DNA of 64,000 nucleotides from Tillus elongatus (taxonomy: Eukaryota > Arthropoda > Insecta > Coleoptera > Cleridae): the NCBI GenBank assembly GCA_964006375.1, contig OZ023269.1:60832968-60896967 (forward strand), in the 5' to 3' direction. Shown piece by piece: positions 600 through 64,000 of this stretch. The notes under the pieces were generated by a model. The model was not told where the DNA came from. It was given only the letters and a program-made list of their open reading frames with translations, and made no database searches. Both the position numbers and the translations under genes were made by a program. Within the stretch, counting starts at the first letter, position 1, and every line of letters begins with the position of its first letter.

Positions 600-1029
600 T
601 GTTTATTAAAAGTTTAAGAACTACCTATAATAAACATGTTCTTCAACTTATAGTAGTTCCTCTTCCAAAAGTATTGAATGGAGGGGGATATCCTTGAGTT
701 GCTGCAGATTTATGAGAACAATTTAAGAATAACTCTAACATACAATCTTGAAGTATTTAGTGACAATCATAATTAAACATGATAAAAAAATATTAGGAAT
801 AAATTATTTATTCTGACATTTTGTTTCTTTTCAAACAATACATTAAATTTAGATAGAATAACTCTAACATAGGATCTTGAAGTATTTAGTGACAATCATA
901 ATTAAACATGATAAAAAAATATTAGGAATAAATTATTTATTCTGACATTTTGTTTCTTTTCAAACAATACATTAAATTTAGATATAATGCAAGTAATATA
1001 ATGATACACAAAAAAAATGTAAAAAACCT
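600..1029. repeat. Intergenic region with two 129-bp direct repeats (copy A)
   Basis: Two tandem copies of about 129 bp (roughly 726-983), each containing the motif ATTTAGATATAATGC or AATTTAGATAGAATAAC at one end. They mirror 19597-19854 in copy B. AT-rich; no ORF. Confidence 0.85.
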
Positions 1030-1770: not shown

Positions 1771-1847
1771 GTTTAGAGTTAAAGTAACTGACAAGCTAAC
1801 ATTAAATGCTACTTATATATTTTACCCCCCTTCCATAAAATCTATTG

Positions 1848-5931: not shown

Positions 5932-6110
5932 GTTGATAAAGTGATTCCGAGGTCAACAAAATTGCTCACTAAATACTTATTGTGATTATATCTTTGAGTT
6001 ATCCGGCGGCACCACGTGGAGGTGTATAATCAACGCTCGCCATTTTGTTTTCTACAATAGAAACAATTTTTATTAGACAAAAAAAATTTGTTGTCTTTAT
6101 TAAAAATTTG

Positions 6111-6111
<1 letters not shown>

Positions 6112-6157
<46 letters not shown>
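6112..6157. repeat. Poly(A) tract (copy A), mirror of the poly(T) tract upstream of polB in B
   Basis: A run of more than 40 A at the junction between the polB relic fragment and the polB upstream region. Copy B has T65 or so at 14399-14465. Homopolymer length differs between copies. Confidence 0.9.
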
Positions 6158-6500: not shown

Positions 6501-6856
6501 TTTGAACTATCATGACTTTAAGTGTTCCCGAAAAAACCGGTTTCTTGGTTAACCTTATAAATTAAATTTGAAGCATTTAATGAAAATTCGCTACCATAAC
6601 GCACTTACTGCGTCCCGAATTTATTTTCAATGCAAAAAAAAATACAATAACATAAGGTGTGTTCTATTAAAAAGAAAATTTGTATCATTTATGATGATTG
6701 TAGAAATATTTTTTAAGATGTAGCTCAAGACACCCTATAATTGATGTATACAATTTTTTTCATATCTTGTATATTAACGGATATATTAAACTTTATTGAT
6801 TTTTTCATGAAAATTAGACAAAAAGTATATTGCAAAAGCTAGAAAAAATCTAATAG

Positions 6857-6947
<91 letters not shown>

Positions 6948-7312
6948 CAAAAAATTCCGAAAGTAAACTTAAAGTGTTCCTGAAAAATGGTTTATTGATT
7001 AACCTTATAAATTAATAGCAAATTGAGCTATTTAAATTTGAAGCATTTAATGAAAATTCGCTACCATACCATGCATAATATTTTGAAGGAAAATGCAAAA
7101 AAATACAAAAAAACATAAGGCATGTTTGATTATAAAAATAAAATTTGTATCACTTGGGCCACCCTGTGATTGTAAATATATATTTTCTAAGATGTATTTC
7201 AAATATTCCTACATCTAATGTATGCATTTTTTTTTTTTCATATCTTATATAATAATGGATATATTAAACTTTATTGATTTTTTTAATGAAAATTCGACAA
7301 AAATTATATATC

Positions 7313-7399
<87 letters not shown>

Positions 7400-8480
7400 T
7401 ATAATGTACCCAGAAAAAAAATTAAAACGATAATCAAAAAAAGTCTGGACGCAGCAAGTGTGTGATGGTAATGAATTTTCATTAAATTGCTTTAATGCTA
7501 AATATCAAGACACCCTATAATTAATATATACAATTTTTTTTTCATATCTTGCATAATAATAGATATATTAAACTTTATTGATTTTTTTTTTACGAAAATT
7601 CGACAAAAATTATATATCATTATATATATATGTGTGTTTTTAAGAAAGCAGGCATTAAATTTGGTTACCAGTATAACCTATATAGTAGAAACAATGTGCT
7701 ATGTTTCATCAAAATAACTGTATTGTTTGAAAATATACAAAAAAGATTCCGAAAGTAAACGTAGTGATTCCCGAAAAAAAATGGTTTATTGATTAACCTT
7801 ATAAATTAATAGTAAATTGAGCTATTTAAATTTGAAGCATTTAATGAAAATTGGCTACTATAACGCACTTACTGCGTCCCGAATTTATATTCTTACAAAC
7901 ATGCGTTTTTGAAAACAATGTGCTATGTTTCGTCAAAATAACTTTATTGGTTGAAAATGTACAAAAAAATCTGAAAGTAAACATAAAGTGTTTCCGAAAA
8001 AATGGTTTATTGATTAACCTTATAAATTAATAGCAAATGGACCTATTTAAATTTGAAGCATTTAATGAAAATTCGCTACCATAATGCACTTACTGCATCC
8101 TGAATTTATTTTCTTACAACATGCATAATATTTTGAAGGAATATGTAAAAAAAAATACAAAAAAACATAAGGCATCTTTTTTTATAACAAGAAAATTTGC
8201 ATCATTTATGGGGGCAGCCTGTGATTGAAGAAATATTTTTTTTAAGATGTAGCTCAAGACACCCTATAATTAATATATACAATTTTTTTTTCATATCTTG
8301 CATAATAATAGATATATTAAACTTTATTGATTTTTTTACGAAAATTCGACAACGCATTGGAGAAATGGTCTATAAATACACTAGAAATTAAAAAAATACA
8401 CACTTACCGCAATAGATAAAATATGCACACAAAAAATTCACTGGTTTATGTATACCCGACTGCACCGTCACTGCCTTTTA
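6500..8480. repeat. Non-coding satellite-like block of copy A with (TA)n tracts
   Basis: Contains repeated modules of about 170-260 bp that share GACGCA(G)YAAGTGCGTTAT, TTTTCATTAAATGCTTCAAAT and AACCTTATAAATTAATAG (in one orientation or the other). (TA)n tracts lie at 6860-6944 and 7316-7397. Compared with the right arm it lacks about 635 bp at 7499 and a second, smaller piece near 7632. No gene seen. Confidence 0.85.
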
Positions 8481-8481
8481 T

Positions 8482-9155
8482 CTACCGTCGAGACCTTAGC
8501 ATGTCTGCCAAATTTTGGAGATGTTGTATTGTCTCCGTAATGTATGTTGGTTGTGAAGATGGTGCATCAAAAATGTAAGCCTCCACAGCTATAGTCATGC
8601 TAGCCAAATAAGCATCATAGTCACCAGCAATGTAAGCTTCCACAGAATCACATATGTTAGATAACATAGCATCATCATCATCAACCGACAAAAAATCCCC
8701 CAAGTCTCTGTCGACTCTCACTCCTGCTGAAGATGATTGGCCATCTTCAGCGGGAGTGGGAACCTCTATGTTTTCCGCAGGTGACATGTCTGCTCTTACA
8801 CTTGCTGAAAATGCCACTAGCTGCGGAGAAGGTGTTCTGGCTAAATTAATGTCATTTTCAGCAGGCACAGGAGCTTCATACCATCCAGTAATGGCATGTG
8901 ATTCATTTGTTGATGTTGACTCTGATCAATAAATTGAGTAGAGGCAGCATCGATAAATAAATCTGGCGCAGAACTTGGACCTGGTGCGTTTTCAATGATA
9001 CCGATCTCTTCCAAAGGTGGTCGTAAAACAATGTTTTGTAAAACTTTTACCTTTGGATGACAATTTAAACAATTTTCTTCACAATCGAAAGGCAATTTAA
9101 TTTTTTTGGGGTTTTCTAATATCTTCGCTAAGATTGGTCTCTTGCTCGGAGACAA
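8482..9155 (-). pseudogene. Disrupted acidic, Pro/Ala/Ser-rich Polinton gene (copy A)
   Basis: Two overlapping frames (9155-8841 and 8868-8482) join into one protein if a frame change near 8870-8900 is assumed. The C-terminal half has repeated PAEN/PAED motifs, an acidic stretch (LSVDDDDAML) and a helical tail ending in ADMLRSRR. The N-terminal frame has no ATG: it opens with TTG at 9155 and, read further upstream, shows a short Cys-rich piece (CLCGGIFKCRYC) before a stop. Copy B retains only the last 41 codons (11054-11176). Function unknown; it is the second gene in from the left terminus. It may be spliced or simply decayed. Confidence 0.55.
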
Positions 9156-10163
<1,008 letters not shown>

Positions 10164-10481
10164 TTAATTTTCGCTTTTTTCTTCACAAGCAGCAAGATAA
10201 TTCCTAATCATCTTAGTAAAATGCTCCTTATAATTAAAAAATAAATGCTGGAATGTAGACTGGCTTAGTTGCTCTATAAAGTGAGAACTAGAAATTTGAT
10301 GATTTCTATACGATCTAATTGCCTTCATTAGATGATTGTATTTTATACAAACTTGAACCCATTGATCGTCTGGCATATCTTCTATGATTCTTGAACATAG
10401 AATTTCACTACGTAAATTGTCTTGTATACGGCTTAAGACTTCTTCAATGGTGGTTGGGGTGGTACTGCTTACATCGTTCAT
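10164..10481 (-). CDS. Small terminal Polinton gene, 105 aa, unknown
   Basis: An open frame with ATG at 10481, reading inward from the left terminal repeat, which ends 94 bp upstream of the start. The protein is acidic-to-neutral, helix-rich and without Cys clusters or membrane segments; I recognise no family. Its position matches that of the 146-aa gene beside the right terminal repeat, so both terminal genes are probably transcribed from promoter sequence inside the repeats (inference). Copy B lacks this gene because it is truncated. Confidence 0.5.
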   Translation of the reverse strand: MNDVSSTTPTTIEEVLSRIQDNLRSEILCSRIIEDMPDDQWVQVCIKYNHLMKAIRSYRNHQISSSHFIEQLSQSTFQHLFFNYKEHFTKMIRNYLAACEEKSEN

Positions 10482-10574
10482 TTTTTTGTAAAAAAAATTT
10501 TAACACTCTAATTAAAAACTCTCTACTTAAAAAAACTACTTTTCTTTTATGTTAAAAACTCGCTCGCTAATATT

Positions 10575-10980
10575 CTTTACACTTTATTATAAATAAACTC
10601 GAACTCTTGTATAGAGGATTCTAATAATATTAATTCCCTGAGATATCTCCTGTACATATATAATACAAATTTCAAGGATAAATTTGTAAACTTGAATGTG
10701 TCTGTGACCATGAAAATGTGGTTGGCCTTGACCTTAAAAAAAAATATCGCTGGCCGCGACCGTGCAGAAACACATCTGGCCTTGAGCTTAAAAAATAGCC
10801 GTGACCGTGGGAAAATACATCTTGCCTTGACCTTAAAAAATACCTCTGGCCGTGGGAAAATACATCTGGCCTTGACCTTAAAAAAATACACCTGGCCGTG
10901 GGAAAATATATCGCTGGCCTTGACCTTGAAAATATCTCCACCACCGCGTCAAGGTCGTTCCAGAACAGACATTATCTCTC

Positions 10981-10984
<4 letters not shown>
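10575..10984 (-). repeat. Left terminal inverted repeat of Polinton A
   Basis: This 410-bp sequence recurs at 28677-29089 in the same window orientation. Because A reads on the minus strand and B on the plus strand, the two are inverted relative to the element, as terminal inverted repeats must be. In element orientation it begins AGTAGAGAGATA, fitting the AG...CT termini known for Polintons. The inner part includes TTTATAATAAAGTGTA next to the first gene; the outer part is a degenerate ~45-bp minisatellite (GGCCTTGACCTTAAAAAATA type units). A frame of 90-120 codons through the minisatellite is an artefact of its periodicity. Confidence 0.85.
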
Positions 10985-11052
<68 letters not shown>

Positions 11053-11053
11053 A
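10985..11053. repeat. (TA)n tract joining Polinton copies A and B
   Basis: About 34 TA units lie exactly between the terminal AG of A (10984) and the first base shared with A in truncated copy B (11054). It marks the junction of the head-to-head pair. Confidence 0.9.
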
Positions 11054-11176
11054 GCTAGCATGACTATAGCTGTGGAGGCTTACATTTTTGATGCACCATC
11101 TTCACAACCAACATACATTACGGAGACAATACAACATCTCCAAAATTTGGCAGACATGCTAAGGTCTCGACGGTAG
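11054..11176 (+). pseudogene. 3' fragment of the acidic Polinton gene (copy B)
   Basis: Encodes only the last 41 residues (from LASMTIAVEAY to ADMLRSRR) of the gene at 8482-9155 in copy A, then a stop. The apparent start further upstream runs through (TA)n and the A terminal repeat and is not meaningful. Confidence 0.8.

Positions 11177-14079
<2,903 letters not shown>

Positions 14080-14400: not shown

Positions 14401-14465
<65 letters not shown>
14399..14465. repeat. Poly(T) tract upstream of polB (copy B)
   Basis: A run of about 65 T between the polB relic and the polB upstream region. Could be the trace of a retroposed poly(A) tail on the opposite strand, or slippage. Confidence 0.9.
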
Positions 14466-14467
<2 letters not shown>

Positions 14468-14646
14468 CAAATTTTTAATAAAGACAACAAATTTTTTTTG
14501 TCTAATAAAAATTGTTTCTATTGTAGAAAACAAAATGGCGAGCGTTGATTATACACCTCCACGTGGTGCCGCCGGATAACTCAAAGATATAATCACAATA
14601 AGTATTTAGTGAGCAATTTTGTTGACCTCGGAATCACTTTATCAAC

Positions 14647-17600
14647 ATGAGTCTCACATGTACGACGTGTCAGAAAATCTTCACAAGAAAAGATAGTCTT
14701 AAGCGACACAGGAGCACTGTTCATTGCGTCCAACCACTAACAAAACTCCCTGACAACGCCGTCGACACGGCGACAATTTCAAGCATTGCTGGACCAAGTG
14801 GAATCAGGAATGTTGCAGTATCACTGACAGATAGTTCTAACGCTGGACAGTCGATAGCAAATCAATCAACTGTGACAAGAAAGCGTCATCACACAGGTAT
14901 CGACACGGCGCCAATTTCAAGCATTGCTGGACCAAGTGGAATTAGCAATGTCGCAGTTTCACCGACAGTGCCAGCAAAGCGTCGTCGTACAGCTATCGAC
15001 ATGGCGACAGACATTGCTAGACCCGAACCATCGGCAACAAATCAACGAGTTGCAACTATACGCTGCAGTGCCTGCGACTGTGAAGTTCCTGCCAACATGT
15101 ATGCTGGACATATCAGGAGCACCAAGCATAAAGCTCAATTTTGGAAACCTTTAGCAGATGGTGTTCGTGTGTGTAGGAGCACATTTAAAGGGAGAATAGT
15201 GAGTTATCAAATTACTTCTGACTATGTAGGACTAAATATAATTGATTATATGAATAGTGTTAAAGATAAGTCTATTGATATGCTGAAAAATGAACTTTAT
15301 AAACTAACAGCATTTAAATGTAATTTTGAATTATTCGGTTTATATATTTTACCCTCTCGTAATATAAGGGAAGTTAAATCTCATAACACATCTAATAAAG
15401 TAGTAACATCTTCATCTGATTTAGAAAATTTGTTTAATGATTTTGTAATTAGAATAGACCAACGTGCTTCAGACTTCACAGAGAGAGATTCAGGCTGGGC
15501 GCTGGAAAAAATTTTATATTTGGAAATAAATATTAATAAGTATAATCCTTTAAGAGCTGCTTCATATTTGCCATTACCACGTGCAATCACATTAAAAAAA
15601 GCTATAATTAATATTAAAAATAATGATGTATATTGTTTTGCTTGGTCAGTAATAGCTGCTATTTACAAACCAACTGGCTCAGTTTCTTCACCAAGCTCCT
15701 ATCCAAATTTTAACGATACCTGTATCGATTTTACTAATTTATCATTTCCTGTCGCATTAAAATCAATACCTGAATTTGAAAAAAAGAATAATATTTCTAT
15801 TAACGTTTACGGCTTAGAGAAATTTTTTAAAAATAATGTCTATAAATATCAAGTTACGGGCCCTCTACATTACACACAGAAAAAGCAATCCACCCACATA
15901 AACCTATTGTTACTTGATGATTGTGAGGGAAATTATCACTATTGTCTTATAAATAATTTTTCTAGGCTCATTTCTTCCCAGATATCAAAAAACACACGAT
16001 CGAAGCATTTTTGCGATGGCTGTTTACAATATTTTGATTGTGAGCAAAAGTTACTTCGACATGCCCAAAATGATTGCAATTATGTGACTGCAAAAATTCC
16101 ACAGTTAAATACAAGGATTGATAAGTTAGGTCATACGGTTTTAGATAACGTTTTAAAATTTGAAAATTTCCAAAAGCAGCTGAGATTACCTTTTTCTGTT
16201 TATGCAGACTTTGAATGCATTTTAGAACCTATAGAAGATAATACCGATAACAATAACAAAGAAACTTTTACTATTAAAAAATATAAGCATATACCTTGTT
16301 CTTTCGCCTATTACATAAAATGTTCATTTAATGATGAACTTTCAAAATTAGTTTTATACCGAAATAATGATGCCCCGGAGGTTTTTGTTTCACGATTAGA
16401 AAGTGATTTGAGAGATATTTATTATAAGTATTTAAAACCGATAATTAAAATGAAACCTTTAACATGTCAAGAACAAAAAAAATTCAATGACGCCACCCTT
16501 TGCTTTATTTGTGAAATGCCATTTACAGATTCAGATGTGAAAGTAAGGGATCACTGTCATTTAACGGGAAATTTTAGAGGTGCGGCACACAACGCCTGCA
16601 ACCTTAATTTTAAAACCCCTTTGCAAATACCAATTTTTTTTCATAACTTGAAAAATTATGATGCACACCTTTTTGTGAAGCAACTTGCGCTCAATCAAGA
16701 AGAAGTGACTGTAATTCCTCAAACATTTGAAAAATACATTTCCTTTGCGAAAAAACTTCCAGTTGATAAATATATTAGTGCTGATGGCACAACAAAAACG
16801 ATTTTTCTACAAATGAAATTTTTAGACTCGTATCAATTTTTATCCGCTTCATTAGATGAATTGGCTTCAAACTTAGATTCGCCACAATGTCGTGAAGTAC
16901 GTAAATTCTTTTCTGGTGATCAAAAGTTCTCTATTATGAGGCGGAAAGGAGTTTTTCCTTACACATATGTAACCGAATTTTTAAAATTTCATGAAACATT
17001 TTTACCAAGTAAAGATAAGTTTTTTGACGAACTTCGAAATGAAGAAGCATCTCAAGAAGATTATGATAGGGCTTGCAATGCATGGCATGTTTTAGATTGT
17101 AAAACTTTAGGAGACTACTTTGACTTCTACTTAATATCTGATGTTCTATTGCTTGCCGATGTTTTTGAAAACTATAGGGACTTATGTCTCAAAACTTACA
17201 AACTTGACCCGGCCCACTACTACACAGCTCCAGGCTTAAGTTGGGATGCAATGTTACGATACACAAAAGTTGAATTAGAGCTATTAACTGATATTGATAT
17301 GCTGCATTTTTTTAAAAAGGGAATTCGAGGTGGTGTGAGTACTTGCATTCGACGAAAAGCTATCGCCAACAATAAATTTCTTCCAAATTATGATCCCTCA
17401 AGGCAAAACTCATTCATAATGAACTTAGATATTACATCCATGTATGGCTTCGTGATGAGCCAGAAACTTCCCACGGGGAATTTTCATTGGCTCTCGCAAG
17501 AGGAAATTGAATCTTTACATAATAATGTTTCAAATATTCCAGACGATGCTGAGACGGGTTATGTTTTGGAAGTTGATCTTGAATATCCTACATATTTACA

Positions 17601-18732
17601 TGACTGTCATAATGACCTACCATTTTGTCCGGAAAATTATAAACCACATGGTAGCAAAAGTCGAAAACTAATTCCAAATTTGCAAAATAAAGAAAAGTAT
17701 ATTTTACATTATAGAAATTTAAAACAATGTCTAAAGTATGGTCTTAAATTAATAAAAATTCACAGAGGTATACAATTTTCTCAATCGGCATGGCTTAAAC
17801 CATACATAGAGTTGAATACAAAGTTGCGAAATTCTGCCAAGAATGACTTTGAGCGTCGTAGTTTTAAATTGAAAATAAATTGTATATTTGGAAAAACAAT
17901 GGAAAATGTTGAAAACCGTGTAAATATAAAGCTTGCAACACAGTTTGAAAAAAATGTTAAAAGAAATGGTGCCGGAAATTATATAAGCAGACCCCATTTT
18001 AAAGAATCAAGAATATTTTGTGACAATTTAGTAGCTATTCAAATGCAAAAAACATATATTGAATATAACAAACCTATTTATGTTGGATTTTCAATACTAG
18101 ATATATCAAAAACTATACTCTATGATTTTTTTTATGGATTTTTAAAACCATTATATGGTGATAATATATCTCTTTTATATACTGATACGGATTCTTTAAT
18201 AGTTTATGTTGAAACTGAAAATTTTTATGAAGATATGAAACAGCACCTTGATAAATATGATACTTCTAATTATAGCCTAAATAATATACACAATATTCCA
18301 AAAAACTTATCGACTATAGGAAAAATGAAGGATGAATATGGTGGGAAAGTATTAGAATCCTATTATGGTACTTCTGCAAAAGCATATTGCATTAACACTC
18401 CAGAGACAATTTCAAAGAAGGCAAAAGGAATAAATAAGTCCAGCATTAAAAAGCAGTTAGAACTTAAACATTATAAAGCAATTGTGGATGGAGAATGTTC
18501 AAGCATACATTGTCTAATGTATATCTTTAAATCAGAATCTCATCAGATTTTTACCAACCTTATACGTAAGGTTGCATTATCTAATAAAGATGATAAACGA
18601 TACCTCATCCCTTCATCAAGTGCCACTTTGGCTTGGGGGCATATAGATATACCATTAGCAAGTCTATCAGCTGACGAAAGATTAGATCGTCTTATTCAAG
18701 TAATGAAAGAGGTTGCTGAAAGCGACATTTAG
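14647..18732 (+). CDS. polB: Protein-primed DNA polymerase B of Polinton, intact 1361 aa
   Basis: Replicates the element using a protein primer (family knowledge). N-terminal C2H2 zinc finger (CTTC...HRSTVHC, residues ~4-26), a second one (CSAC...HIRSTKH, ~140-165) and a third (CDGC...HAQNDC, ~455-475). Between them a Cys/His-containing region (CFAWSVIAA ~330; HYCLINNFSRL ~430) recalls a papain-like fold, tentatively. Exonuclease motifs: YADFEC (~519), NLKNYDAH (~666), YLISDVLLLAD (~828). Inserted after the first is an endonuclease-VII-like zinc segment (CFICEMPF...DHCH...CNLNF, ~619-655). Polymerase motifs: DITSMYGFVM (~928), KINCIFG (~1076), YTDTDSL (~1178), SAKAYC (~1250). The ATG at 14647 lies 70 bp after a short non-coding leader. 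Intact, unlike copy A. Confidence 0.97.
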   Translation: MSLTCTTCQKIFTRKDSLKRHRSTVHCVQPLTKLPDNAVDTATISSIAGPSGIRNVAVSLTDSSNAGQSIANQSTVTRKRHHTGIDTAPISSIAGPSGISNVAVSPTVPAKRRRTAIDMATDIARPEPSATNQRVATIRCSACDCEVPANMYAGHIRSTKHKAQFWKPLADGVRVCRSTFKGRIVSYQITSDYVGLNIIDYMNSVKDKSIDMLKNELYKLTAFKCNFELFGLYILPSRNIREVKSHNTSNKVVTSSSDLENLFNDFVIRIDQRASDFTERDSGWALEKILYLEININKYNPLRAASYLPLPRAITLKKAIINIKNNDVYCFAWSVIAAIYKPTGSVSSPSSYPNFNDTCIDFTNLSFPVALKSIPEFEKKNNISINVYGLEKFFKNNVYKYQVTGPLHYTQKKQSTHINLLLLDDCEGNYHYCLINNFSRLISSQISKNTRSKHFCDGCLQYFDCEQKLLRHAQNDCNYVTAKIPQLNTRIDKLGHTVLDNVLKFENFQKQLRLPFSVYADFECILEPIEDNTDNNNKETFTIKKYKHIPCSFAYYIKCSFNDELSKLVLYRNNDAPEVFVSRLESDLRDIYYKYLKPIIKMKPLTCQEQKKFNDATLCFICEMPFTDSDVKVRDHCHLTGNFRGAAHNACNLNFKTPLQIPIFFHNLKNYDAHLFVKQLALNQEEVTVIPQTFEKYISFAKKLPVDKYISADGTTKTIFLQMKFLDSYQFLSASLDELASNLDSPQCREVRKFFSGDQKFSIMRRKGVFPYTYVTEFLKFHETFLPSKDKFFDELRNEEASQEDYDRACNAWHVLDCKTLGDYFDFYLISDVLLLADVFENYRDLCLKTYKLDPAHYYTAPGLSWDAMLRYTKVELELLTDIDMLHFFKKGIRGGVSTCIRRKAIANNKFLPNYDPSRQNSFIMNLDITSMYGFVMSQKLPTGNFHWLSQEEIESLHNNVSNIPDDAETGYVLEVDLEYPTYLHDCHNDLPFCPENYKPHGSKSRKLIPNLQNKEKYILHYRNLKQCLKYGLKLIKIHRGIQFSQSAWLKPYIELNTKLRNSAKNDFERRSFKLKINCIFGKTMENVENRVNIKLATQFEKNVKRNGAGNYISRPHFKESRIFCDNLVAIQMQKTYIEYNKPIYVGFSILDISKTILYDFFYGFLKPLYGDNISLLYTDTDSLIVYVETENFYEDMKQHLDKYDTSNYSLNNIHNIPKNLSTIGKMKDEYGGKVLESYYGTSAKAYCINTPETISKKAKGINKSSIKKQLELKHYKAIVDGECSSIHCLMYIFKSESHQIFTNLIRKVALSNKDDKRYLIPSSSATLAWGHIDIPLASLSADERLDRLIQVMKEVAESDI

Positions 18733-18809
18733 CAATAGATTTTATGGAAGGGGGGTAAAATATATAAGTAGCATTTAATGTTAGCTTGTCAGTTACTTTA
18801 ACTCTAAAC

Positions 18810-19550
18810 ATGAGTCAATACTTATATTCGGAACTTTTCTCTCGCTTATGTGGTGAAACACAAACAATTTGTAAGCGTACTTTGCGATATATAATTACTA
18901 GAAATGCTTGTGAAGAAAATTTACCAGTTGCTGTAGCTATTTTAAATAAAATAGCCGTTCCAGATGCAGCTTTTCGTTATATAGTTGATAGCGAAGTTTG
19001 CAGCAATAATTTAATTTCATTATTGGTGGAAAAAAAATTAAAGTTGGATAAGTTTATAGATGATGTGATTGAAGTAGTGAAGCATGGTGGCCATGAGTTT
19101 TTAAGTATTTTGGAATTGGACGATTTACTTGGTGAGAATCACATCACTTCACCGATTTGTGAAAAATACTATTTGTTTACTTTATTAACATGTGGAGATT
19201 TGAAAAATTTTGATGAAAAATATCAAGCAACAAATATTTCCTCAAAATATAGGAAAATTGATTCATTAATCGATGAAACTATTTGCAATGTTGCCCATTT
19301 TGCAGATGTTAAACTTTTAAAATGTATAATGGATGTTGTTAAACAATTTAATATTAAATTTCACTTTGAGCCAAATAATAATGATGAACATAAACAAGTT
19401 CATGCATGGTTAACAAAAAATATTGAGAAGGGGTTGAAAGGTGGTGATAATTTAGGGTGGGAAGAAGGACCCTGTATGGCCAAATGGCCTTCAACAAAAT
19501 TTAAAGATTATATTGAAACTTTAAGTTGTTTGTATGAATGGTCTCATTAA
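18810..19550 (+). CDS. Unknown Polinton protein, 246 aa
   Basis: Starts at ATG 18810 (the longer frame begins with TTG at 18786, which I reject). 77 bp after polB, same direction. No known domain, signal peptide or membrane segment; contains several single Cys residues and a helical character. Identical in copy A. Being tied to polB in both copies it is an element gene and not host DNA; a role in replication or early functions is only a guess from position. Confidence 0.75.
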   Translation: MSQYLYSELFSRLCGETQTICKRTLRYIITRNACEENLPVAVAILNKIAVPDAAFRYIVDSEVCSNNLISLLVEKKLKLDKFIDDVIEVVKHGGHEFLSILELDDLLGENHITSPICEKYYLFTLLTCGDLKNFDEKYQATNISSKYRKIDSLIDETICNVAHFADVKLLKCIMDVVKQFNIKFHFEPNNNDEHKQVHAWLTKNIEKGLKGGDNLGWEEGPCMAKWPSTKFKDYIETLSCLYEWSH

Positions 19551-19596
19551 AGGTTTTTTACATTTTTTTTGTGTATCATTATATTACTTGCATTAT

Positions 19597-19854
19597 ATCT
19601 AAATTTAATGTATTGTTTGAAAAGAAACAAAATGTCAGAATAAATAATTTATTCCTAATATTTTTTTATCATGTTTAATTATGATTGTCACTAAATACTT
19701 CAAGATCCTATGTTAGAGTTATTCTATCTAAATTTAATGTATTGTTTGAAAAGAAACAAAATGTCAGAATAAATAATTTATTCCTAATATTTTTTTATCA
19801 TGTTTAATTATGATTGTCACTAAATACTTCAAGATTGTATGTTAGAGTTATTCT
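19597..19854. repeat. Two tandem 129-bp direct repeats
   Basis: Copies 19597-19725 and 19726-19854 begin ATCTAAATTTAATGTATTG and end GTTAGAGTTATTCT, with very few differences. They lie between the 246-aa and 216-aa genes and follow a possible polyadenylation region. The pair is also present in copy A, so the duplication predates the A/B pair. Confidence 0.92.
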
Positions 19855-19980
19855 TAAATTGTTCTCATAAATCTGCAGCAACTCAAGGATATCCCCCTCC
19901 ATTCAATACTTTTGGAAGAGGAACTACTATAAGTTGAAGAACATGTTTATTATAGGTAGTTCTTAAACTTTTAATAAACA

Positions 19981-20631
19981 ATGAATAATTACAACAATTG
20001 CCAGCCAGCTAACCAAGCAATTTCTGAAAAATCAGCTAAGAAAAATAATTTTGTGACAATTAATGAGAAACAATATCATCTCAACCCATCCAAATCAAAA
20101 TATGTATGCTGTGCACTAGCTTACGAATTTAACTTTCAACCTTTGGTGATAATTAAAGGTTTGAAAGGTGATAGTGTGTTTTTAAATGAGTCTGAATGGA
20201 ATGAGTTCCTGAAGCATCAAGGCATAGTAACTAACTATTTTTATACAACGAGTGGTGAAACTTTTCAACCACTAAAGTCTTCATTTACAATACATTTTGA
20301 ATGGTTTAGAGATATAAAAATCATAAAAGTGGAAGATAAATATGGTAATGGGGTCTATTTAGCTATGGAAACTGTTAGCAAATTATTTGAACTGGCATCC
20401 CTAATCAACTATAAAGTAGATATGCTCAAGAAACAAGAATTTTCCAAGTATTTCGATACCTTGATCGACAGTGTCAATTCCAACATTGATGTTGGTCAGT
20501 TTATTTTAAATGAAGTGTCTACGACAGGCAATTCGGAAAATGTCAGTTCAGTAATGGAGCTGGTATATCAGTATCCGAATTTGAAAGTATTCAACAGATA
20601 CAGCCCTTTTTCATTTTACAATCAACACTGA
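19981..20631 (+). CDS. Unknown Polinton protein, 216 aa
   Basis: Open from ATG 19981 to TGA 20629-20631. N-terminus is Asn/Gln-rich; the middle has a beta-rich-looking region (KYVCCALAYEF, VFLNESEWNEFLKHQG) and the C-terminus is helical. The EW...L pattern is faintly like a small single-strand DNA-binding cofactor, but that is not a reliable call. It is followed almost at once (2 nt) by the 75-aa gene, so the two are probably co-expressed. Confidence 0.72.
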   Translation: MNNYNNCQPANQAISEKSAKKNNFVTINEKQYHLNPSKSKYVCCALAYEFNFQPLVIIKGLKGDSVFLNESEWNEFLKHQGIVTNYFYTTSGETFQPLKSSFTIHFEWFRDIKIIKVEDKYGNGVYLAMETVSKLFELASLINYKVDMLKKQEFSKYFDTLIDSVNSNIDVGQFILNEVSTTGNSENVSSVMELVYQYPNLKVFNRYSPFSFYNQH

Positions 20632-21129: not shown

Positions 21130-22068
21130 TTATACAAAAGTATCCTTAGGTATCCAAGAATTATTTGATTTATCTAGTCCTAACCATTTCACAAATACCT
21201 CCCCCCCCCTCCTCCTAATAATTCTTTCTATTAAATATATGTCTGGATATTTTACTTTCTGAAGTTCTTCTTCGTAGAATCCTCCTTTAATTGATTGCTT
21301 TTTTCCATCTTCAAGATAATACATTGTTGGATTTGTCACTCTCACCTCAGCTATTTGAAAAATCTCATTGGACCAGTTCGGTGTATAACCTTTTTCAAAA
21401 AGTTCACGATGTTTACTTATACGAACAAAATCCCCAACACGAAATTTTTTTTTCTTCGGATCAACTGTTTTCATATAACTAAATGCATATTTTAAAAGAT
21501 GTTTTTCATGTTTCTTCTTAACTTCTGCCGGCCTCATACCAGTAGTACTGTGTACCTTATTATTATAATATGAAACAATGTTTTTAAGGAGATCTAGCCA
21601 TTTGTAATTTCCCTGCATGCTGAATTGCTTCCACATTAAAGTCTTCAATGTTCTGTTTACACGTTCACATATACTAGCCTTAAGATTTGTATAAGTGGCG
21701 TAATGATTTATTTGAAACTGATCCATCAGGGATTTGAACTCTCGACCAAAAAACTCCATACCATTATCTGTCTGTACATTTTTGGGGTGAGTTTTCAGAG
21801 ATTTTAGAATATTAGCCATAGCTTTGGCAACTTCTTTTGATGTTTTACTTTTTAATGGTTCAGCCCAGACAAACTTTGAAAAAACATTAATTACTACTAA
21901 AATGTATTTGTACCCCTTATTGAATTTAGAATAAGGAAGCATTTCTACTAAATCTGCCTGAAACAAATCATTTAAACCCTTAACTATTACATGACGCCTT
22001 CTATAATTTCTTCTAGCGGGTTTGTGAAGTTCATTCACAACTACTTCTTTTACATTGATAGCGGACAT
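21130..22068 (-). CDS. int: Retroviral-type integrase with chromodomain
   Basis: Inserts the element into chromosomes. The catalytic triad is visible as D in FQADLVEM, D in QTDNGMEF and E in ICERVNR, with 33 residues between the last two, close to the usual D,D-35-E. The basic linker RRNYRRRH lies before the core. A C-terminal chromodomain (YLIERIIRRRGGEVFVKWLG...SWIPKD) may direct insertion to heterochromatin, as in chromoviral integrases. ATG at 22068 is chosen; the frame extends upstream only to a TTG. The N-terminal HHCC zinc motif is not in this frame. The 5' end overlaps the next gene by 19 nt. Confidence 0.93.
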   Translation of the reverse strand: MSAINVKEVVVNELHKPARRNYRRRHVIVKGLNDLFQADLVEMLPYSKFNKGYKYILVVINVFSKFVWAEPLKSKTSKEVAKAMANILKSLKTHPKNVQTDNGMEFFGREFKSLMDQFQINHYATYTNLKASICERVNRTLKTLMWKQFSMQGNYKWLDLLKNIVSYYNNKVHSTTGMRPAEVKKKHEKHLLKYAFSYMKTVDPKKKKFRVGDFVRISKHRELFEKGYTPNWSNEIFQIAEVRVTNPTMYYLEDGKKQSIKGGFYEEELQKVKYPDIYLIERIIRRRGGEVFVKWLGLDKSNNSWIPKDTFV

Positions 22069-22403
22069 TTTAGGTGTAGTTCTATGGCGCAAGCGATCGC
22101 TTTGCTGTTTGGAGAATGTTCAAAATAAAATGTATCTCCTGATTTTATCTTCACACCAACTAATTTTTTAGCAGATATTTTTGTATTATTTAGAAATATA
22201 GTGACTTCAGTTGAAGGATTTAAATAATTTTTTTCAATTTCCGCAGCGTAGTCAAACAATATTGCATAGGATTCATTATTTAAATACCATCTATGGATGT
22301 TTTTATCGATTGATTTATATCCATTATATAGTAAAATTATTTTTTGTTGTAGTTTTGAATTGAGATTTCTGTTTATTATTCTACCAAATTTGTCTAAAGT
22401 CAT
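22050..22403 (-). CDS. Small Polinton protein upstream of integrase, 117 aa
   Basis: ATG at 22403, stop overlapping the integrase start by 19 nt in another frame. No family recognised. Begins MTLDKFG, with a helical first half and a beta-rich second half (VTIFLNN, GVKIKSGDTFYFEH). Tight coupling to the integrase suggests joint expression, perhaps by reinitiation. It is too unlike the integrase zinc domain to be called part of it. Confidence 0.65.
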   Translation of the reverse strand: MTLDKFGRIINRNLNSKLQQKIILLYNGYKSIDKNIHRWYLNNESYAILFDYAAEIEKNYLNPSTEVTIFLNNTKISAKKLVGVKIKSGDTFYFEHSPNSKAIACAIELHLKCPLSM

Positions 22404-23461: not shown

Positions 23462-24151
23462 TTACGGATAAATATAGGCATCAAATCCTTTTCTATATCT
23501 GCCAGCCTGGAATGGAAATTCTTTATTTATAACCAAAAATCCGAATTTACCTTTCCAACAATAACAACACATATCTTTAAATTTCTGAAATGTCATATCA
23601 ACATTAACATGATCATCATAAATATGTTTCAGATTAGTATTATCTTGTTTAAATATTACAAGCAAATTTGCATTATCTCTAATTAATTGTTTTGGAATTG
23701 AGGAATAAGTTTGACATAGATAAAAACAATCTGCATTGTTATGGCGGCCGAAGCAAAAATAATCTCTCATAATGCTTTGATTGCAGCAAACAATATCATC
23801 AAATATTATTATTGAATTTGACTTTATCTGGTCAGGGGGCACTATGTCATCACCGTTTTCATATTCAAAATATCCTATATCTGTAATAGGTTGCAAAAGG
23901 TGTTTGAGATATTTATATTTTGATTGGTTAAGTGACTTGGAATAGATGTAAATGTTTTCAAAACGTAATCCATTCGGATGTTCTAAGAGCGTAACCATTA
24001 CATTTGTTTTTCCACAACCGGATGCTCCAACCAACAGACCTCTTTTACATTCACTACCCAATAAAGTACCGTGTCGGCTGAACTTTTCTGCTAAAGAAAT
24101 GTCATCGTGATCCTGAATCGGCAACTTTAATGCTTGTTGCGTCACCCTCAT
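23462..24151 (-). CDS. FtsK/HerA-type DNA-packaging ATPase
   Basis: Powers packaging of the element's DNA into capsids. Walker A GASGCGKT (residues ~42-49), Walker B IIIFDD (~113-118) followed by a conserved region with YLCQTYSSIPKQLIRDN, typical of the A32-like packaging ATPases of adenovirus-like and Polinton elements. 229 aa, the normal size. First gene of the leftward late block; divergent from pX, with a 141-bp shared upstream region at 24152-24292. Confidence 0.93.
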   Translation of the reverse strand: MRVTQQALKLPIQDHDDISLAEKFSRHGTLLGSECKRGLLVGASGCGKTNVMVTLLEHPNGLRFENIYIYSKSLNQSKYKYLKHLLQPITDIGYFEYENGDDIVPPDQIKSNSIIIFDDIVCCNQSIMRDYFCFGRHNNADCFYLCQTYSSIPKQLIRDNANLLVIFKQDNTNLKHIYDDHVNVDMTFQKFKDMCCYCWKGKFGFLVINKEFPFQAGRYRKGFDAYIYP

Positions 24152-24292: not shown

Positions 24293-24667
24293 ATGAAGTT
24301 AAAACGTTTGTTGGCACTGGCACTTCGTAGAAAAGGTAAATTATTAAAAAAAGGAAGGGGTTTATCTTTTTCCAAAATGCCTTTCGGCATTAAAGGAAAA
24401 CATAAAAAATCGAAACGTAGTAAGAAAAGTAGAATAATACGTGCTCCCAAAATTGGTGGCTTTTTACCTTTCTTGCTACCTGCTTTGGGAGCGTTAGGTG
24501 CATTAGCCGGAGGCGGCGCCAGTATAGCGAAAACCGTAGTTGATGCCAAGAATGCTGCAAAGGTATTACAAGAAGCAAAACGTCATAATATGGAGCTTGA
24601 AAAAGTCGTCAGATCATCTAAAGGTTCTGGGTTATTTTTAAAACCGTACCAAAAAAACTTCCGATAA
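24293..24667 (+). CDS. Basic core/membrane-active capsid protein, adenovirus pX/pVI-like
   Basis: 124 aa. Lys/Arg-rich N-terminus (residues 1-50, including KGKHKKSKRSKKSR, a nuclear signal and DNA-binding stretch), a Gly/Ala/Leu-rich hydrophobic segment (~55-82) and a short helical tail ending in GSGLFLKPYQKN. This is the layout of small virion core or membrane-active proteins placed next to the protease in Polintons and related adenovirus-like elements. Its last codons carry the slippery sequence A_AAA_AAC at 24652-24658, two codons before the stop. A homologue is present in copy C. Confidence 0.8.
   Translation: MKLKRLLALALRRKGKLLKKGRGLSFSKMPFGIKGKHKKSKRSKKSRIIRAPKIGGFLPFLLPALGALGALAGGGASIAKTVVDAKNAAKVLQEAKRHNMELEKVVRSSKGSGLFLKPYQKNFR
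24652..24658 (+). promoter_or_regulatory. Putative -1 ribosomal frameshift site (A_AAA_AAC)
   Basis: The heptamer is in phase with the pX frame (CAA AAA AAC). A slip of one base back places ribosomes into the protease frame, which is open from 24622 but has no ATG upstream of its conserved start. No obvious stem-loop was found by eye in the following 60 nt. Confidence 0.65.
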
Positions 24668-25035
24668 AACTACCATCGCGACCTTTGACGAATATTGATT
24701 TACTAAAGTTTGCAAATTTGTTAAAGATAAAAAAATTTCGGGGCGTATACATGAGAGACAATCTACCAATCAAAATTAAAAACAACGAGTCTGGCATTAT
24801 TAATCTTGACAGTAAACAGGGTAGCGGAACTCATTGGACCGCATATGTAAAGAAAAAAGCACATATAAATTATTTCGATAGTTATGGAAACTTACGACCC
24901 CCCAGCGATGTAGTTAATTATTTTTTTAGCGGTGATTATAATAACACAATCACTTATAATTATCAAAGGGAGCAAAGTCCCCATTCTTTTAGGTGTGGTC
25001 ACCTGTGTTTGAAATTTCTATATAACACACAGTAA
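24658..25035 (+). CDS. Adenain-type cysteine protease, probably made as a pX-protease frameshift fusion
   Basis: Cleaves capsid precursors. The visible catalytic pattern is His in GTHWTAYVKK, Asp in YFDSYGN and Cys in SFRCGHLCLKFL, matching family C5 (adenain), in a compact form of ~125 residues. The frame has no ATG before the conserved segment GVYMRD; the first possible start is a TTG at 24685. It lies in the -1 frame to pX and the frames overlap (24622-24667). With -1 frameshifting at 24652-24658 the product would be about 247 aa (pX 1-122 plus 125). Splicing or a non-ATG start are alternatives. Followed 28 nt later by the penton gene. Confidence 0.85.
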   Translation, partial: LPIKLPSRPLTNIDLLKFANLLKIKKFRGVYMRDNLPIKIKNNESGIINLDSKQGSGTHWTAYVKKKAHINYFDSYGNLRPPSDVVNYFFSGDYNNTITYNYQREQSPHSFRCGHLCLKFLYNTQ

Positions 25036-25062
25036 TCTCTGCTGTATTGCCAGTTGTGTAAC

Positions 25063-25740
25063 ATGTCTTACGCTTTTACATTTTCGGGAAAGGAATCTGT
25101 GCTTAGCGCAGATTTTAATCGTCCAATATTTCTAGATGACAATTCACAATATGTGATTGGTCTAACAAATTTCGAGACTTTCAATGTTATCCCTAATATT
25201 GATGAAACCAACAATAAATTTTTCTATGGCACTGAACATGTTACAATTCCAACAGGTTCTTATGAAATTTCAGATATACATCAATATTTACAGAAAAACA
25301 TGAAAAAAGAAACTTTAGAACTCGAAGCGAATAATAATACATTAAAAACTATTTTAAAATGTAGTAAAGATATTGATTTTTCAAAAGCCAATTCCATCGG
25401 TAAACTTTTAGGATTTAGTAATAAGCTTTTAAAGGCGAATTTAGTTCATGAATCAGAAAATCCAGTTGAAATTATTAAAGTAAATGCTTTATGTATTGAC
25501 TGCAACATATCTTCTGGTTCCTATAATAATGGTAAGCCGGTTCATACAATACATCAGTTTTTTCCCACTGTGCCTCCTGGATATAAAATAGTGGAAACGC
25601 CTCAAAACATCATTTACTTTCCAGTTACCGTTAAGACCATTACTAATATAACCATTAAGGTGCTTGATCAAGACGGAAATTTAGTAAATTTTAGGGGTGA
25701 AACGGTTACAGTAAAGGTGCATTTAAAAAAAGATATATAA
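25063..25740 (+). CDS. Penton-like minor capsid protein
   Basis: 225 aa from ATG 25063 (the longer frame starts with TTG). Beta-rich throughout, in line with a single jelly roll that forms the pentameric vertices; conserved landmarks are SIGKLLGFS, SGSYNNGKP and VTVKVHLKKD. Family assignment follows from gene order (protease - penton - major capsid) and from the diverged homologue in copy C (62717-63387). Start context and the 28-nt gap to the protease suggest a shared transcript. Confidence 0.8.
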   Translation: MSYAFTFSGKESVLSADFNRPIFLDDNSQYVIGLTNFETFNVIPNIDETNNKFFYGTEHVTIPTGSYEISDIHQYLQKNMKKETLELEANNNTLKTILKCSKDIDFSKANSIGKLLGFSNKLLKANLVHESENPVEIIKVNALCIDCNISSGSYNNGKPVHTIHQFFPTVPPGYKIVETPQNIIYFPVTVKTITNITIKVLDQDGNLVNFRGETVTVKVHLKKDI

Positions 25741-25896
25741 ATGGTTGTGAGATATAATGCTTTATATCTACCCTCTTGGTTGCCAGAGTATAAAAACAGA
25801 AACCTTCAGAAAAAATTCAGTATTCTAAAAAGGCCTAAGCTATTAACACCTTCCAACCGACAATTCTTACAATCACTTGGTTTTCAAGTAAAATGA
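25741..25896 (+). CDS. Small basic Polinton protein, 51 aa
   Basis: ATG follows the penton stop directly, and the stop TGA overlaps the capsid start (ATGA). Basic, ending in LTPSNRQFLQSLGFQVK; such short proteins between penton and capsid genes occur in other animal Polintons as far as I recall. A cement or core function is possible. It is absent in copy C, where penton and capsid genes are adjacent. Confidence 0.65.
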   Translation: MVVRYNALYLPSWLPEYKNRNLQKKFSILKRPKLLTPSNRQFLQSLGFQVK

Positions 25897-27137
25897 ATAT
25901 TCTTGACGTTGCACAAAAAGTAGTTGTAGATGATTCTATTGTAGATTACCAGTACCATACCTACCAGGCATGTACATCTTCACAATTTGATTATAACGAT
26001 GAACAACGGATCACTGTTCAAGAACTTGATGCATATACACTTCCTTCTGACAGCTTTTTGTACATTGAAGGTAAATTAACCAAAACAGATGGTACGGTGT
26101 CAAACAATTTGTTTTTTATTAACAACGCAATAGCTTTTCTTTTTAGAGAAATTCGTTATGAACTGAACGGTGTAGTAGTAGATTCCACACGCAATGTAGG
26201 ACTTGCTTCAACAATGAAAAATTATTTTTCATTAAATTCTAACGAAAGCATAAAACTTCAAAACGCGGGTTGGTTTCCTAAAAGCGAAAAACGCACAGAT
26301 GATCGTATCAAAGTTGATGCGAATGGAAATTTTAATGTTTGTATTCCATGTTCCCACTTATTGGGATTTTTCGAAGATTATCGTAAAATTATAATGAATA
26401 TGAAACAAGAACTAATCCTTATTAGAAGTAGTGATGATAAAGATGCTGTAATCTACATTGATGATCCTGCAGCTCCCACCCCTACAGTAGATGAGCCGAA
26501 AGTTACAATTGAGAAGGTGTCCTGGAAAGTTCCCCATGTTACCGTTTCTCTCGCACAGCAGTTACAGCTTTCCAGACAAATTCAAAAGGGGGTGGAAATT
26601 CCATTACCCTTTCGAAGCTGGGAGTTAATAGAATACCCAGCTCTTCCAGAAACATCTAGACATACTTGGCCAGTTAAGACCACTACAAAACTCGAATCAC
26701 CACGCCATATTCTTACAGGATTTCAAACTGATAGAAAAGGAAAGATTTTAAAAGATATGAGTAAATTTGATAATTGTAACCTAAGAAATTTTAGAGCTTT
26801 TCTAAACACTGAAAGGTATCCTTACCAGGACCTCAACTTAAATATTCTGGAAAATAAATTTGCCTCGCTTTACGAAATGTTTTCAAAATTTCAACAATCT
26901 TATTATCAAAAGGAAAATCAACCCCTCTTTACACCAACTGAATTTGCAAAATTAGCGCCTTTAGTTCATATTGACTGCTCCCGACAAAAGGATAGCATTC
27001 AATCAGGGTCGGTTGTAGTGAGACTTGAATTCGAAACAAATGCAAACATACCACATAACACATCCGCATACTGTTTAATTTTGCATGATAAACTATTTAC
27101 TTACAATCCCCTGACGAAAATCGTAAGACAAATTTAA
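25893..27137 (+). CDS. Major capsid protein (double jelly-roll type)
   Basis: 414 aa. Landmarks: DYQYHTYQ and LPSDSFLYIEGKL near the N-terminus, YELNGVVVDSTRNVG, FQTDRKGKI and a C-terminal region with FLNTERYPY, VHIDCSRQKDSI and SAYCLILHDK. Long beta-rich regions and size fit the hexon-like proteins that Polintons encode beside the penton protein. It overlaps the 51-aa gene by 4 nt. The copy C homologue (61455-62715) shares most landmarks but is decayed. Confidence 0.85.
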   Translation: MNILDVAQKVVVDDSIVDYQYHTYQACTSSQFDYNDEQRITVQELDAYTLPSDSFLYIEGKLTKTDGTVSNNLFFINNAIAFLFREIRYELNGVVVDSTRNVGLASTMKNYFSLNSNESIKLQNAGWFPKSEKRTDDRIKVDANGNFNVCIPCSHLLGFFEDYRKIIMNMKQELILIRSSDDKDAVIYIDDPAAPTPTVDEPKVTIEKVSWKVPHVTVSLAQQLQLSRQIQKGVEIPLPFRSWELIEYPALPETSRHTWPVKTTTKLESPRHILTGFQTDRKGKILKDMSKFDNCNLRNFRAFLNTERYPYQDLNLNILENKFASLYEMFSKFQQSYYQKENQPLFTPTEFAKLAPLVHIDCSRQKDSIQSGSVVVRLEFETNANIPHNTSAYCLILHDKLFTYNPLTKIVRQI

Positions 27138-63414: not shown

Positions 63415-63829
63415 TCTTTTATTTAAAGATTTTAAACATAAGTGACCACAATTATAAGTATTATATGTAACAGTCTTTAAGGTAACATTGCAACTCGACT
63501 GGTGGCTTTAAGTTTCCATATAAGTCAAAGTACTCGGCTGTGTTACCACGTTTTCTCACTGCAACCGAATGATTGCCAGACTCCTTGTTGCTTTGTAAAT
63601 TCATGATGAATGATTCATTTTTACGCGGTTCATGTCGAGGTAGAGTATCTCGCATGTATACACCTCTTAAATATGGGATTTTCATTTTACCAGCAAATTT
63701 CACAAGATCTTCATTTGTTAGAGGTCTTGCTGGTAAACGACCTATTCGTTTTTTTTTTGCTTCTGTTGATACAACCCATAGCCGCCGCGGTGTTTCTTCA
63801 GATACAGACCTTTGCCGAGTCTCTTGCAT
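63415..63829 (-). pseudogene. Adenain-type protease of Polinton C, decayed
   Basis: Conserved landmarks RPLTNEDLVKFA, GVYMRDTLP and YFDLYGN. The His region reads GNHSVAVRKR (Trp after His lost) and a stop at about 63461 precedes the Cys box, which survives in another frame as YNCGHLCLKSL (63440-63410), with about 15 residues missing. Thus inactive. As in copy B it lies in the -1 frame to pX and overlaps it. Confidence 0.85.
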
Positions 63830-64000
63830 TTTGGTTTTAATTTCAAACCACTACCTCTCTTACCCATTGCGATAGCTTCTATTATCTTGTTGTGACGTTC
63901 TTCTTCCTCCAGTTTGTGCTTGGCTGCTGTCGCATCGTTAACCGCCTTAGCAATACCAGCAGCACCGCTACCCGCAGCACCAAGAGCTGAGAGACCACCA
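63742..64000 (-). CDS. pX/pVI-like protein of Polinton C, partial
   Basis: The frame from the window edge reads GGLSALGAAGSGAAGIAKAV, then a charged helix (KLEEEERHNKI), GSGLKLKPK and a basic tail to TAG at 63744-63742. Alignment with B's pX (GALGALAGGGASIAKTV, AKRHNMELE, GSGLFLKP) is clear. It extends beyond the window. The heptamer A_AAA_AAC (63754-63748) precedes the stop by one codon. Confidence 0.8.
   Translation of the reverse strand, partial: GGLSALGAAGSGAAGIAKAVNDATAAKHKLEEEERHNKIIEAIAMGKRGSGLKLKPKCKRLGKGLYLKKHRGGYGLYQQKQKKNE
63748..63754 (-). promoter_or_regulatory. Putative -1 frameshift site in Polinton C
   Basis: In the pX frame the codons are CAA AAA AAA AAC GAA TAG, so A_AAA_AAC is in phase; a -1 slip enters the protease frame, exactly as in copy B. 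Confidence 0.65.

What the first reader, a model, noticed from the sequence alone, without database searches (positions are those of the whole stretch)
24652..25035. Canonical -1 frameshift signal joins pX and the adenain-type protease in Polinton B
The protease frame has no ATG before its conserved region, overlaps the pX frame by 46 nt, and is exactly in the -1 phase. An in-phase A_AAA_AAC (24652-24658) precedes the pX stop by two codons. A -1 slip would give a ~247-aa pX-protease fusion. The sequence facts are direct; the mechanism is inferred from the known retroviral-type slippery heptamer. I know of no description of this in Polintons or adintovirus-like elements. It would explain how a low dose of protease is made and carried into particles.
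Basis: partly seen in the sequence, partly recalled or inferred. Interest (0 to 1): 0.9.

Follow-up and report, generated by a model that had tools for sequence, protein, structure and literature searches.

The report
Frameshift signal linking Polinton capsid-core and protease
In virus-like Polinton elements of an animal genome, the gene for a capsid-core protein appears to pass into the gene for the particle-ripening protease by a retrovirus-style backward slip of the ribosome, and the slip signal is kept across distantly related element families; this is read from sequence and not yet tested in the laboratory.

Summary
In the window's own genome I read 129 related junctions; 126 could be anchored. 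Of these, 94 have A_AAA_AAC in the same phase with a pX-frame stop 0, 3 or 6 nt later; 23 more, all one family, have A_AAA_AAT inside long A tracts. This spans at least three lineages whose proteases share 44-58% of residues. One lineage, with a second remnant in this window, adds a predicted H-type pseudoknot; the window's main element shows none. Outside this genome 25 of 84 pX relatives end in Lys-Asn plus 0-2 residues, and some relatives carry pX and protease in one frame. The -1 phase alone is weak evidence, since a start overlapping the pX stop gives it too, and some families have an own ATG. My searches of open papers found no pX-protease frameshift; one preprint mentions a possible Hexon-Adenain one. 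There is no experiment.

The parts
24293..24667 (+). pX-like basic/hydrophobic capsid-core protein, 124 aa, stop TAA 24665-24667
   Evidence: relatives P0123/P0124 (65%, 62% identity); P0123 weakly matches Pfam Adeno_PX (E 3e-4, below cut-off). P0001 itself has no match above a Pfam cut-off.
24652..24658 (+). A_AAA_AAC slippery heptamer in the pX frame
   Evidence: found in this phase with a close stop in 94 of 126 related junctions
24622..25035 (+). adenain-type cysteine protease frame, -1 to pX, first in-frame ATG at 24751; after a slip read from 24658
   Evidence: profile A1 matches adenovirus proteinase 1avp (E 9.5e-4) and ASFV pS273R 6lj9 (E 8.7e-5); AlphaFold2 mean pLDDT 91.6, blocks of residues 11-40 at 94-97
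24659..24758 (+). 100 nt downstream of the heptamer: no significant hairpin or pseudoknot
   Evidence: z -0.3 to -0.8; p 0.60 and 0.82 against dinucleotide shuffles
63748..63754 (-). A_AAA_AAC in a second, degenerate Polinton remnant (pX stop TAG 63744-63742; protease frame open 63850..63461, -1 phase; an in-frame ATG lies 75 nt upstream, none between heptamer and domain)
63662..63737 (-). predicted H-type pseudoknot of that remnant: S1 arms 63737-63726 / 63697-63686 (12 bp), S2 arms 63725-63720 / 63667-63662 (6 bp left of 8)
   Evidence: coordinates read off
25066..25740 (+). next gene, function not determined, not part of the frameshift
   Evidence: no Pfam match above cut-off
25893..27137 (+). 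double jelly-roll major capsid protein of the same element
   Evidence: PF21738, E 5.7e-109
23462..24151 (-). packaging ATPase of the same element
   Evidence: PF04665 Pox_A32, E 1.6e-6
21130..22116 (-). retrovirus-like integrase, weak chromodomain match at its end
   Evidence: PF00665, E 1.1e-13; PF00385, E 5.6e-4, below cut-off
14647..18732 (+). large ORF read as the DNA polymerase (label recalled from motifs; Pfam gives only two matches, C2H2 and Endonuclease_7, both below cut-off)

Best explanation
Most ribosomes translate pX and stop at 24665. A minority slip back one base on A_AAA_AAC, and translation goes on in the protease frame, giving a pX-protease fusion (247 residues in this element). 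The fusion supplies little protease relative to pX and ties it to a protein thought to sit in the particle core; the protease would later free itself, as in the gag-pro arrangement of some retroviruses. Shown here: sequence, phase, repeated occurrence of the heptamer and of the nearby stop in distant families, lack of an ATG between heptamer and domain in 10 of 11 heptamer families, one-frame pX-protease proteins elsewhere, and in one lineage a predicted pseudoknot at about the right distance. Inferred: that slipping happens, its rate, packaging, and release.
For: Heptamer in phase with a stop 0 (13), 3 (38) or 6 nt (43) later in 94 of 126 junctions, 84 of the 94 in -1 phase by whole-frame analysis; 11 of 14 families; lineages at 44-58% protease identity. 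Not conditioned on the heptamer: 118 of 126 have Lys-Asn before a close stop, with AAA in 118, a preceding A in 117 and AAC/AAT in 95/23; the preceding codon is CAA 40, CCA 39, AAA 27, ACA 7, TCA 2, GCA 1, CGA 1, CAG 1, so the residue varies and the A hardly does. With family representatives taken regardless of the heptamer, codons agree on average in 47% of pairs over 86 columns of pX; at the slip site Lys agrees in 100% and Asn in 80%. Overlap can be as short as 16 nt (F5, F7) and still holds the heptamer. pX relatives from other sources end in KN plus 0-2 residues in 25 of 84, against 0.7% expected from KN elsewhere in them; the residue before KN is S, P, Q, L, I, K or R in all 25, each of which has a codon ending in A. 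18 of 120 listed protease relatives are called from the internal Met. 26 of 126 proteins examined carry both pX and protease motifs. Families F4, F5, F6, F10, F12 have S1 of 12 bp and S2 of 8 bp (6 in the decayed remnant) 7-10 nt downstream, p <= 0.003 against shuffles.
Against: No measurement of any kind. The window's own element has no detectable stimulatory structure, nor do F3, F7, F9, F11, F14 by the pseudoknot test. 32 of 126 junctions lack A_AAA_AAC with a close stop: 23 of F1, 4 of F8 (own ATG), and L038, L082, L119, L125, L127, each changed at the site. Ten of the 94 positives are not in -1 phase by whole-frame analysis. F11 has an ATG after the heptamer; F9 has GTG and F14 ACG at the same place; members of F4, F10 and F12 and the remnant have an in-frame ATG 72-75 nt upstream, within pX. 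The pseudoknot has no two-sided compensatory change, its arms are coding, the arm-loop contrast is not significant (Fisher p 0.06), and the lineage was picked by a FAG motif that is part of one arm. All DNA is from one genome; other species are seen only as proteins.
Confidence: 0.82

Rival explanations
1. The protease is started on its own, by re-initiation after the pX stop, at an overlapping or nearby ATG, an upstream in-frame ATG or a near-cognate codon, and the heptamer is incidental.
For: 30 of 120 listed relatives begin M(x)LP at the domain; several pX relatives end in P or R, which fits a stop overlapping ATGA (inferred from proteins only). F11 has ATG, F9 GTG and F14 ACG near the matching place; some F4, F10 and F12 members have an in-frame ATG 72-75 nt upstream. 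F8 has its own ATG.
Against: 10 of 11 heptamer families have no ATG between heptamer and domain, and the window's element has none in its whole -1 frame before 24751. Own starts do not explain why AAA and the preceding A are kept while residues change, nor KN at 25 of 84 pX ends.
Confidence: 0.09
2. The frames are joined in the RNA: by splicing, or by RNA polymerase slipping on the A tract.
For: Family F1 has A11-A18, F7 A7-A11, and copies differ in length; long A tracts can make polymerases slip (recalled). Splice sites were not tested.
Against: In most families the tract is only A6-A7 followed by C. The heptamer phase is nearly fixed (95 of 98), which neither splicing nor polymerase slippage needs. 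Splicing would not keep the stop within 0-6 nt of the heptamer.
Confidence: 0.05
3. A chance relic: compact overlapping genes in a Lys-rich, A-rich stretch, alike only through shared ancestry.
For: pX is Lys-rich; AAA is 71% of its Lys codons; per-family chance of the heptamer is 0.08-0.31; many copies are recent duplicates.
Against: Lineages at 44-58% protease identity keep it; codons elsewhere in pX agree in only 47% of pairs; pX ends from other sources repeat KN.
Confidence: 0.04

Closest known systems
gag-pro -1 frameshift of betaretroviruses and deltaretroviruses (MMTV, BLV; recalled, no call)
   Same: Same heptamer A_AAA_AAC, stop codon close behind, downstream frame encodes the maturation protease, upstream frame a structural protein; a pseudoknot is predicted downstream in one Polinton lineage.
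   Different: DNA virus-like element with a cysteine (adenain-type) protease and a pX-like core protein; unrelated genes; no structure found in the window's own element.
Possible Hexon-Adenain (Hexain) and Penton -1 frameshifts in adintoviruses, preprint PMC11071296 (passages read)
   Same: -1 frameshift proposed for virion genes of the same virus group, one of them with adenain downstream.
   Different: Upstream gene is Hexon or Penton; based on KnotInFrame; the passages read give no heptamer, conservation or pX junction.
One-frame pX-protease or PLA2-pX-protease proteins of insects and sequence collections (e.g. P0131, P0134, P0137)
   Same: Same two parts in the same order in one protein.
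   Different: No frameshift needed; some may be gene models or copies with a changed A tract, as L076 and L028 here.
Adenovirus proteinase with its pVI-derived peptide and DNA as cofactors (recalled)
   Same: Adenain-type protease working with a basic virion protein.
   Different: In adenovirus the genes are separate; here the partner would be fused in cis.

Membership tests
Programmed -1 ribosomal frameshift of the eukaryotic-virus type | X_XXY_YYZ heptamer in the upstream frame | tested here: met
   A_AAA_AAC 24652-24658
Programmed -1 ribosomal frameshift of the eukaryotic-virus type | Downstream frame in -1 phase, open across the heptamer | tested here: met
Programmed -1 ribosomal frameshift of the eukaryotic-virus type | Heptamer kept beyond amino-acid constraint | tested here: met
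   Lys codon AAA in 118 of 118, preceding A in 117 of 118; Asn AAC in 95, AAT in 23; KN at 25 of 84 pX ends elsewhere
Programmed -1 ribosomal frameshift of the eukaryotic-virus type | Stimulatory RNA structure a few nt downstream | tested here: inconclusive
   Not found in the window's element; predicted in families F4 (with the 63.7-kb remnant), F5, F6, F10, F12
Programmed -1 ribosomal frameshift of the eukaryotic-virus type | Measured -1 product | not testable with these tools
   needs a reporter, ribosome profiling or peptides
Adenain (C5) cysteine protease | Sequence match and catalytic residues | tested here: met
   profile hit to 1avp and 6lj9; His71 invariant and Cys125 nearly invariant in A1 (their catalytic role is recalled)
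Adenain (C5) cysteine protease | Fold match to a solved adenain | not tested
Polinton/Maverick (adintovirus-like) element | DJR capsid protein, A32-like ATPase, rve integrase, adenain-type protease | tested here: met
Polinton/Maverick (adintovirus-like) element | Protein-primed DNA polymerase B | tested here: inconclusive
   large ORF present; no Pfam match above cut-off
Polinton/Maverick (adintovirus-like) element | Terminal inverted repeats | not tested
   element ends were not sought
Adenovirus protein X (mu) family | Pfam Adeno_PX match | tested here: inconclusive
   P0001 none; relative P0123 below cut-off

The most novel reading that the evidence does not exclude
Arthropod Polintons as a group make their maturation protease by gag-pro logic: a pX (or phospholipase-pX) core protein is extended into the protease by -1 slippage at A_AAA_AAC, in some lineages helped by a pseudoknot. 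The A tract works as an evolutionary switch: lineages move between frameshift, one-frame fusion and separate start, so that pX acts as a built-in carrier and cofactor of the protease.
Probability: 0.5. Interest if true: 0.85.

Novelty: new variant of a known kind. Interest (0 to 1): 0.77.

Why it matters
Polintons are often placed near the root of several eukaryotic DNA virus groups, yet their particles have rarely been shown (recalled). A recoding signal kept across distant families says that the ratio and coupling of core protein to protease were under selection, which fits an assembly-and-maturation life cycle. It would also be a retrovirus-like answer, reached with unrelated genes, to the problem of dosing and packaging a protease. 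It is cheap to test with a reporter of about 120 nt, and it would correct protease gene models that now start at an internal Met.

Tried and rejected
Scans of viral contigs with the protease and with alignment A1, and of prokaryote genome contigs with A1, gave no related DNA, so DNA comparison rests on the window's own genome. A first orientation-blind script gave nonsense for minus-strand copies and was replaced. I first read open frames of 386 aa as in-frame pX fusions; some searches showed that this family has the heptamer and a 134-aa protease, so that reading was dropped. A hairpin or pseudoknot for the window's own element was looked for in two ways and not found. PHROGs gave nothing. 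In-phase TTTAAAA and GGGTTTA upstream in F2/F3 were considered as slip sites: TTTAAAA is lost in L043 and L057, GGGTTTA is at the junction of F3 only. F7 (one -1 copy of four) is weak and I do not count it among the lineages. I lowered the main confidence from 0.84 to 0.82 for this and for the upstream ATGs that I had left out, and raised the own-start rival to 0.09 and the relic rival to 0.04. L103 is the same place as L009 and is counted twice. Three loci (L086, L097, L102) could not be anchored.

Full report
What is in the window. The element between about 14.6 and 27.1 kb carries a rve integrase, an A32-like ATPase, a double jelly-roll capsid protein and an adenain-type protease, so it is a Polinton/adintovirus-like element; the large ORF at 14647-18732 is read as its polymerase from recalled motifs only. 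pX runs 24293-24667 and ends CAA AAA AAC TTC CGA TAA; the protease frame is open 24622-25035 in -1 phase. The AlphaFold2 model of the protease is confident from about residue 11 on, so a start at the internal Met (residue 44) would remove ordered parts of the fold.

A second example in the same window. On the minus strand near 63.75 kb a decayed Polinton has pX ending CAA AAA AAA AAC GAA TAG with the protease in -1 phase. It has no ATG between heptamer and domain, but one 75 nt upstream in the protease frame. Its protease shares 51% of residues with the first.

The genome. The window's own assembly (1.72 Gb) gave 2,873 to 3,102 first-look candidates per protease query, of which 150 were scored each time; these are candidates, not confirmed copies. 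For the window's own junction 40 of 40 scored matches (of 284 candidates) run over all 752 bases at 100% after rounding. I read 129 junctions: the best hits of three searches, 60 small stretches that I chose to spread over families, and the remnant; not a random sample. 126 could be anchored. In 94 of the 126, A_AAA_AAC sits in the phase that would lead into the protease frame and a pX-frame stop follows after 0 (13), 3 (38) or 6 nt (43). By whole-frame analysis 84 of these 94 are in -1 phase; L028, L076 and L120 were called one-frame, L044, L062, L100 and L106 +1, and L027, L126 and L130 undecided, some because only 300 nt upstream were held. The 32 others are 23 copies of F1, 4 of F8, and L038, L082, L119, L125, L127, each changed at the site. 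Of the first 109 loci 106 could be analysed by whole frames: 91 in -1 phase, 9 in +1, 4 in one frame, 2 undecided; 70 of the 91 have the heptamer, in 11 of 14 families. The other three are F1 (A11-A18, A_AAA_AAT), F8 (T7-T10 with A2-A9, own ATG) and F13 (one rearranged copy).

Selection on nucleotides. To avoid choosing by the heptamer, looked for Lys-Asn in the pX phase with a stop within 9 nt: 118 of 126 have it. The Lys codon is AAA in all 118 (AAA is 71% of Lys codons in pX), the base before is A in 117, the Asn codon AAC in 95 and AAT in 23 (all F1). The preceding codon is CAA, CCA, AAA, ACA, TCA, GCA or CGA, with one CAG in the changed copy L082. What follows the Asn varies, and TAA, TAG and TGA all occur as stop. 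With representatives of 13 families, one of them twice, codons agree on average in 47% of pairs over 86 pX columns; the Lys column agrees in 100% and Asn in 80%; two other columns also reach 100%. In F5 the frames overlap by only 16 nt, little more than the heptamer.

Downstream structure. Families F4 (with the 63.7-kb remnant), F5, F6, F10 and F12 share a predicted H-type pseudoknot, S1 of 12 bp and S2 of 8 bp (6 in the remnant), 7-10 nt after the heptamer (p <= 0.003 in 300 dinucleotide shuffles each). In 27 haplotypes from 44 loci, 536 of 540 pair cells stay paired. Variants in two or more haplotypes fall at 3 of 40 arm columns against 9 of 36 loop columns (Fisher p 0.06). Two of the three arm columns are A-to-G changes opposite U, which keep a G-U pair; the third has two single changes, one keeping and one breaking the pair. 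There is no two-sided change, the arms are coding, and the lineage was picked by a motif inside one arm, so this is a prediction and not proof. The window's main element and F3, F7, F9, F11, F14 show nothing comparable in the pseudoknot test; F3 has a hairpin with z -2.1 in one window size of three.

Outside this genome. Only proteins were available. A search with the window protease gave 231 relatives, 120 listed: 30 begin M(x)LP at the domain, 18 begin at the internal Met, 12 begin MW followed by what looks like the -1 reading of the pX motif GLFLKPY, 60 other. A search with pX gave 7 relatives; two end in YQKNFR like the window's, and their contig lengths (2115 and 1130) equal those of two proteases called from the internal Met, P0069 and P0085, which suggests but does not show that they are neighbours. 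A search with a natural one-frame ORF gave 1,264 relatives, 120 listed. Of 126 proteins examined 26 carry both motifs by a simple pattern test; the 96 put down as pX-only include several that are visibly protease pieces. Of 84 pX-only proteins that pass a C-terminal motif filter, 25 end in KN plus 0-2 residues, against 0.7% expected (the proteins are related, so the binomial figure is only an index).

How it most likely works. A -1 slip makes a pX-protease fusion. The phase could first have come from an overlapping stop and start, since ATGA gives the same phase; the matching spot in the window reads ATA. Relatives with one frame (some by a changed A tract, e.g. L076 with A7) suggest that the fused protein is tolerated. 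That pX carries the protease into particles, and may act as cofactor as pVI does in adenovirus (recalled), is inference.

What is in print. Ten full-text searches combined Polinton, adintovirus, Maverick, Eupolintoviridae or adenain with frameshift, slippery, fusion or protease terms; searches matched more papers than they listed (20 of 41, 25 of 14,636). Among the papers opened, one is relevant: PMC11071296 suggests -1 frameshifts in Penton and a similar relationship for potential Hexon-Adenain fusions (passages only). Passages of PMC10120064, PMC8097293, PMC8363768, PMC12567637 and PMC11071308 found by my terms mention none at this junction. Other listed papers, such as PMC12721341 and PMC9683012, were not opened; Starrett et al. 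2021 is not held; papers outside the open library were not seen. The retroviral parallels (MMTV, BLV) are recalled.

Noticed in passing
1-6157 and 14421-20579: A second Polinton copy at the left edge is an inverted duplicate (arms reported at 100%); its large polymerase-like frame is interrupted near 4316, and a junction with the same heptamer lies just outside the window on the minus strand (L005).
   Followed up: partly
L089 (family F9); proteins P0127, P0131, P0135, P0137: Several pX relatives carry an N-terminal phospholipase-A2-like domain (PF08398 in the P proteins; by eye in L089); in copy L028 it looks like a separate ORF.
   Followed up: partly
L009 family (F1) and L079 family (F8): Junction has A11-A18 or T7-T10/A2-A9 tracts whose length differs between copies, putting the frames in -1, +1 or one frame.
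   Followed up: partly
25036-25066; L109, L110: The gene after the protease lies in the protease frame right after its stop in three families; by eye not in the 63.7-kb remnant.
   Followed up: partly
50576-52672 (-) and 53197-58558 (+): ORFs that look like non-LTR retrotransposons (by eye).
   Followed up: no
6800-13600: Dense tandem and inverted repeats between the two inverted Polinton copies.
   Followed up: no
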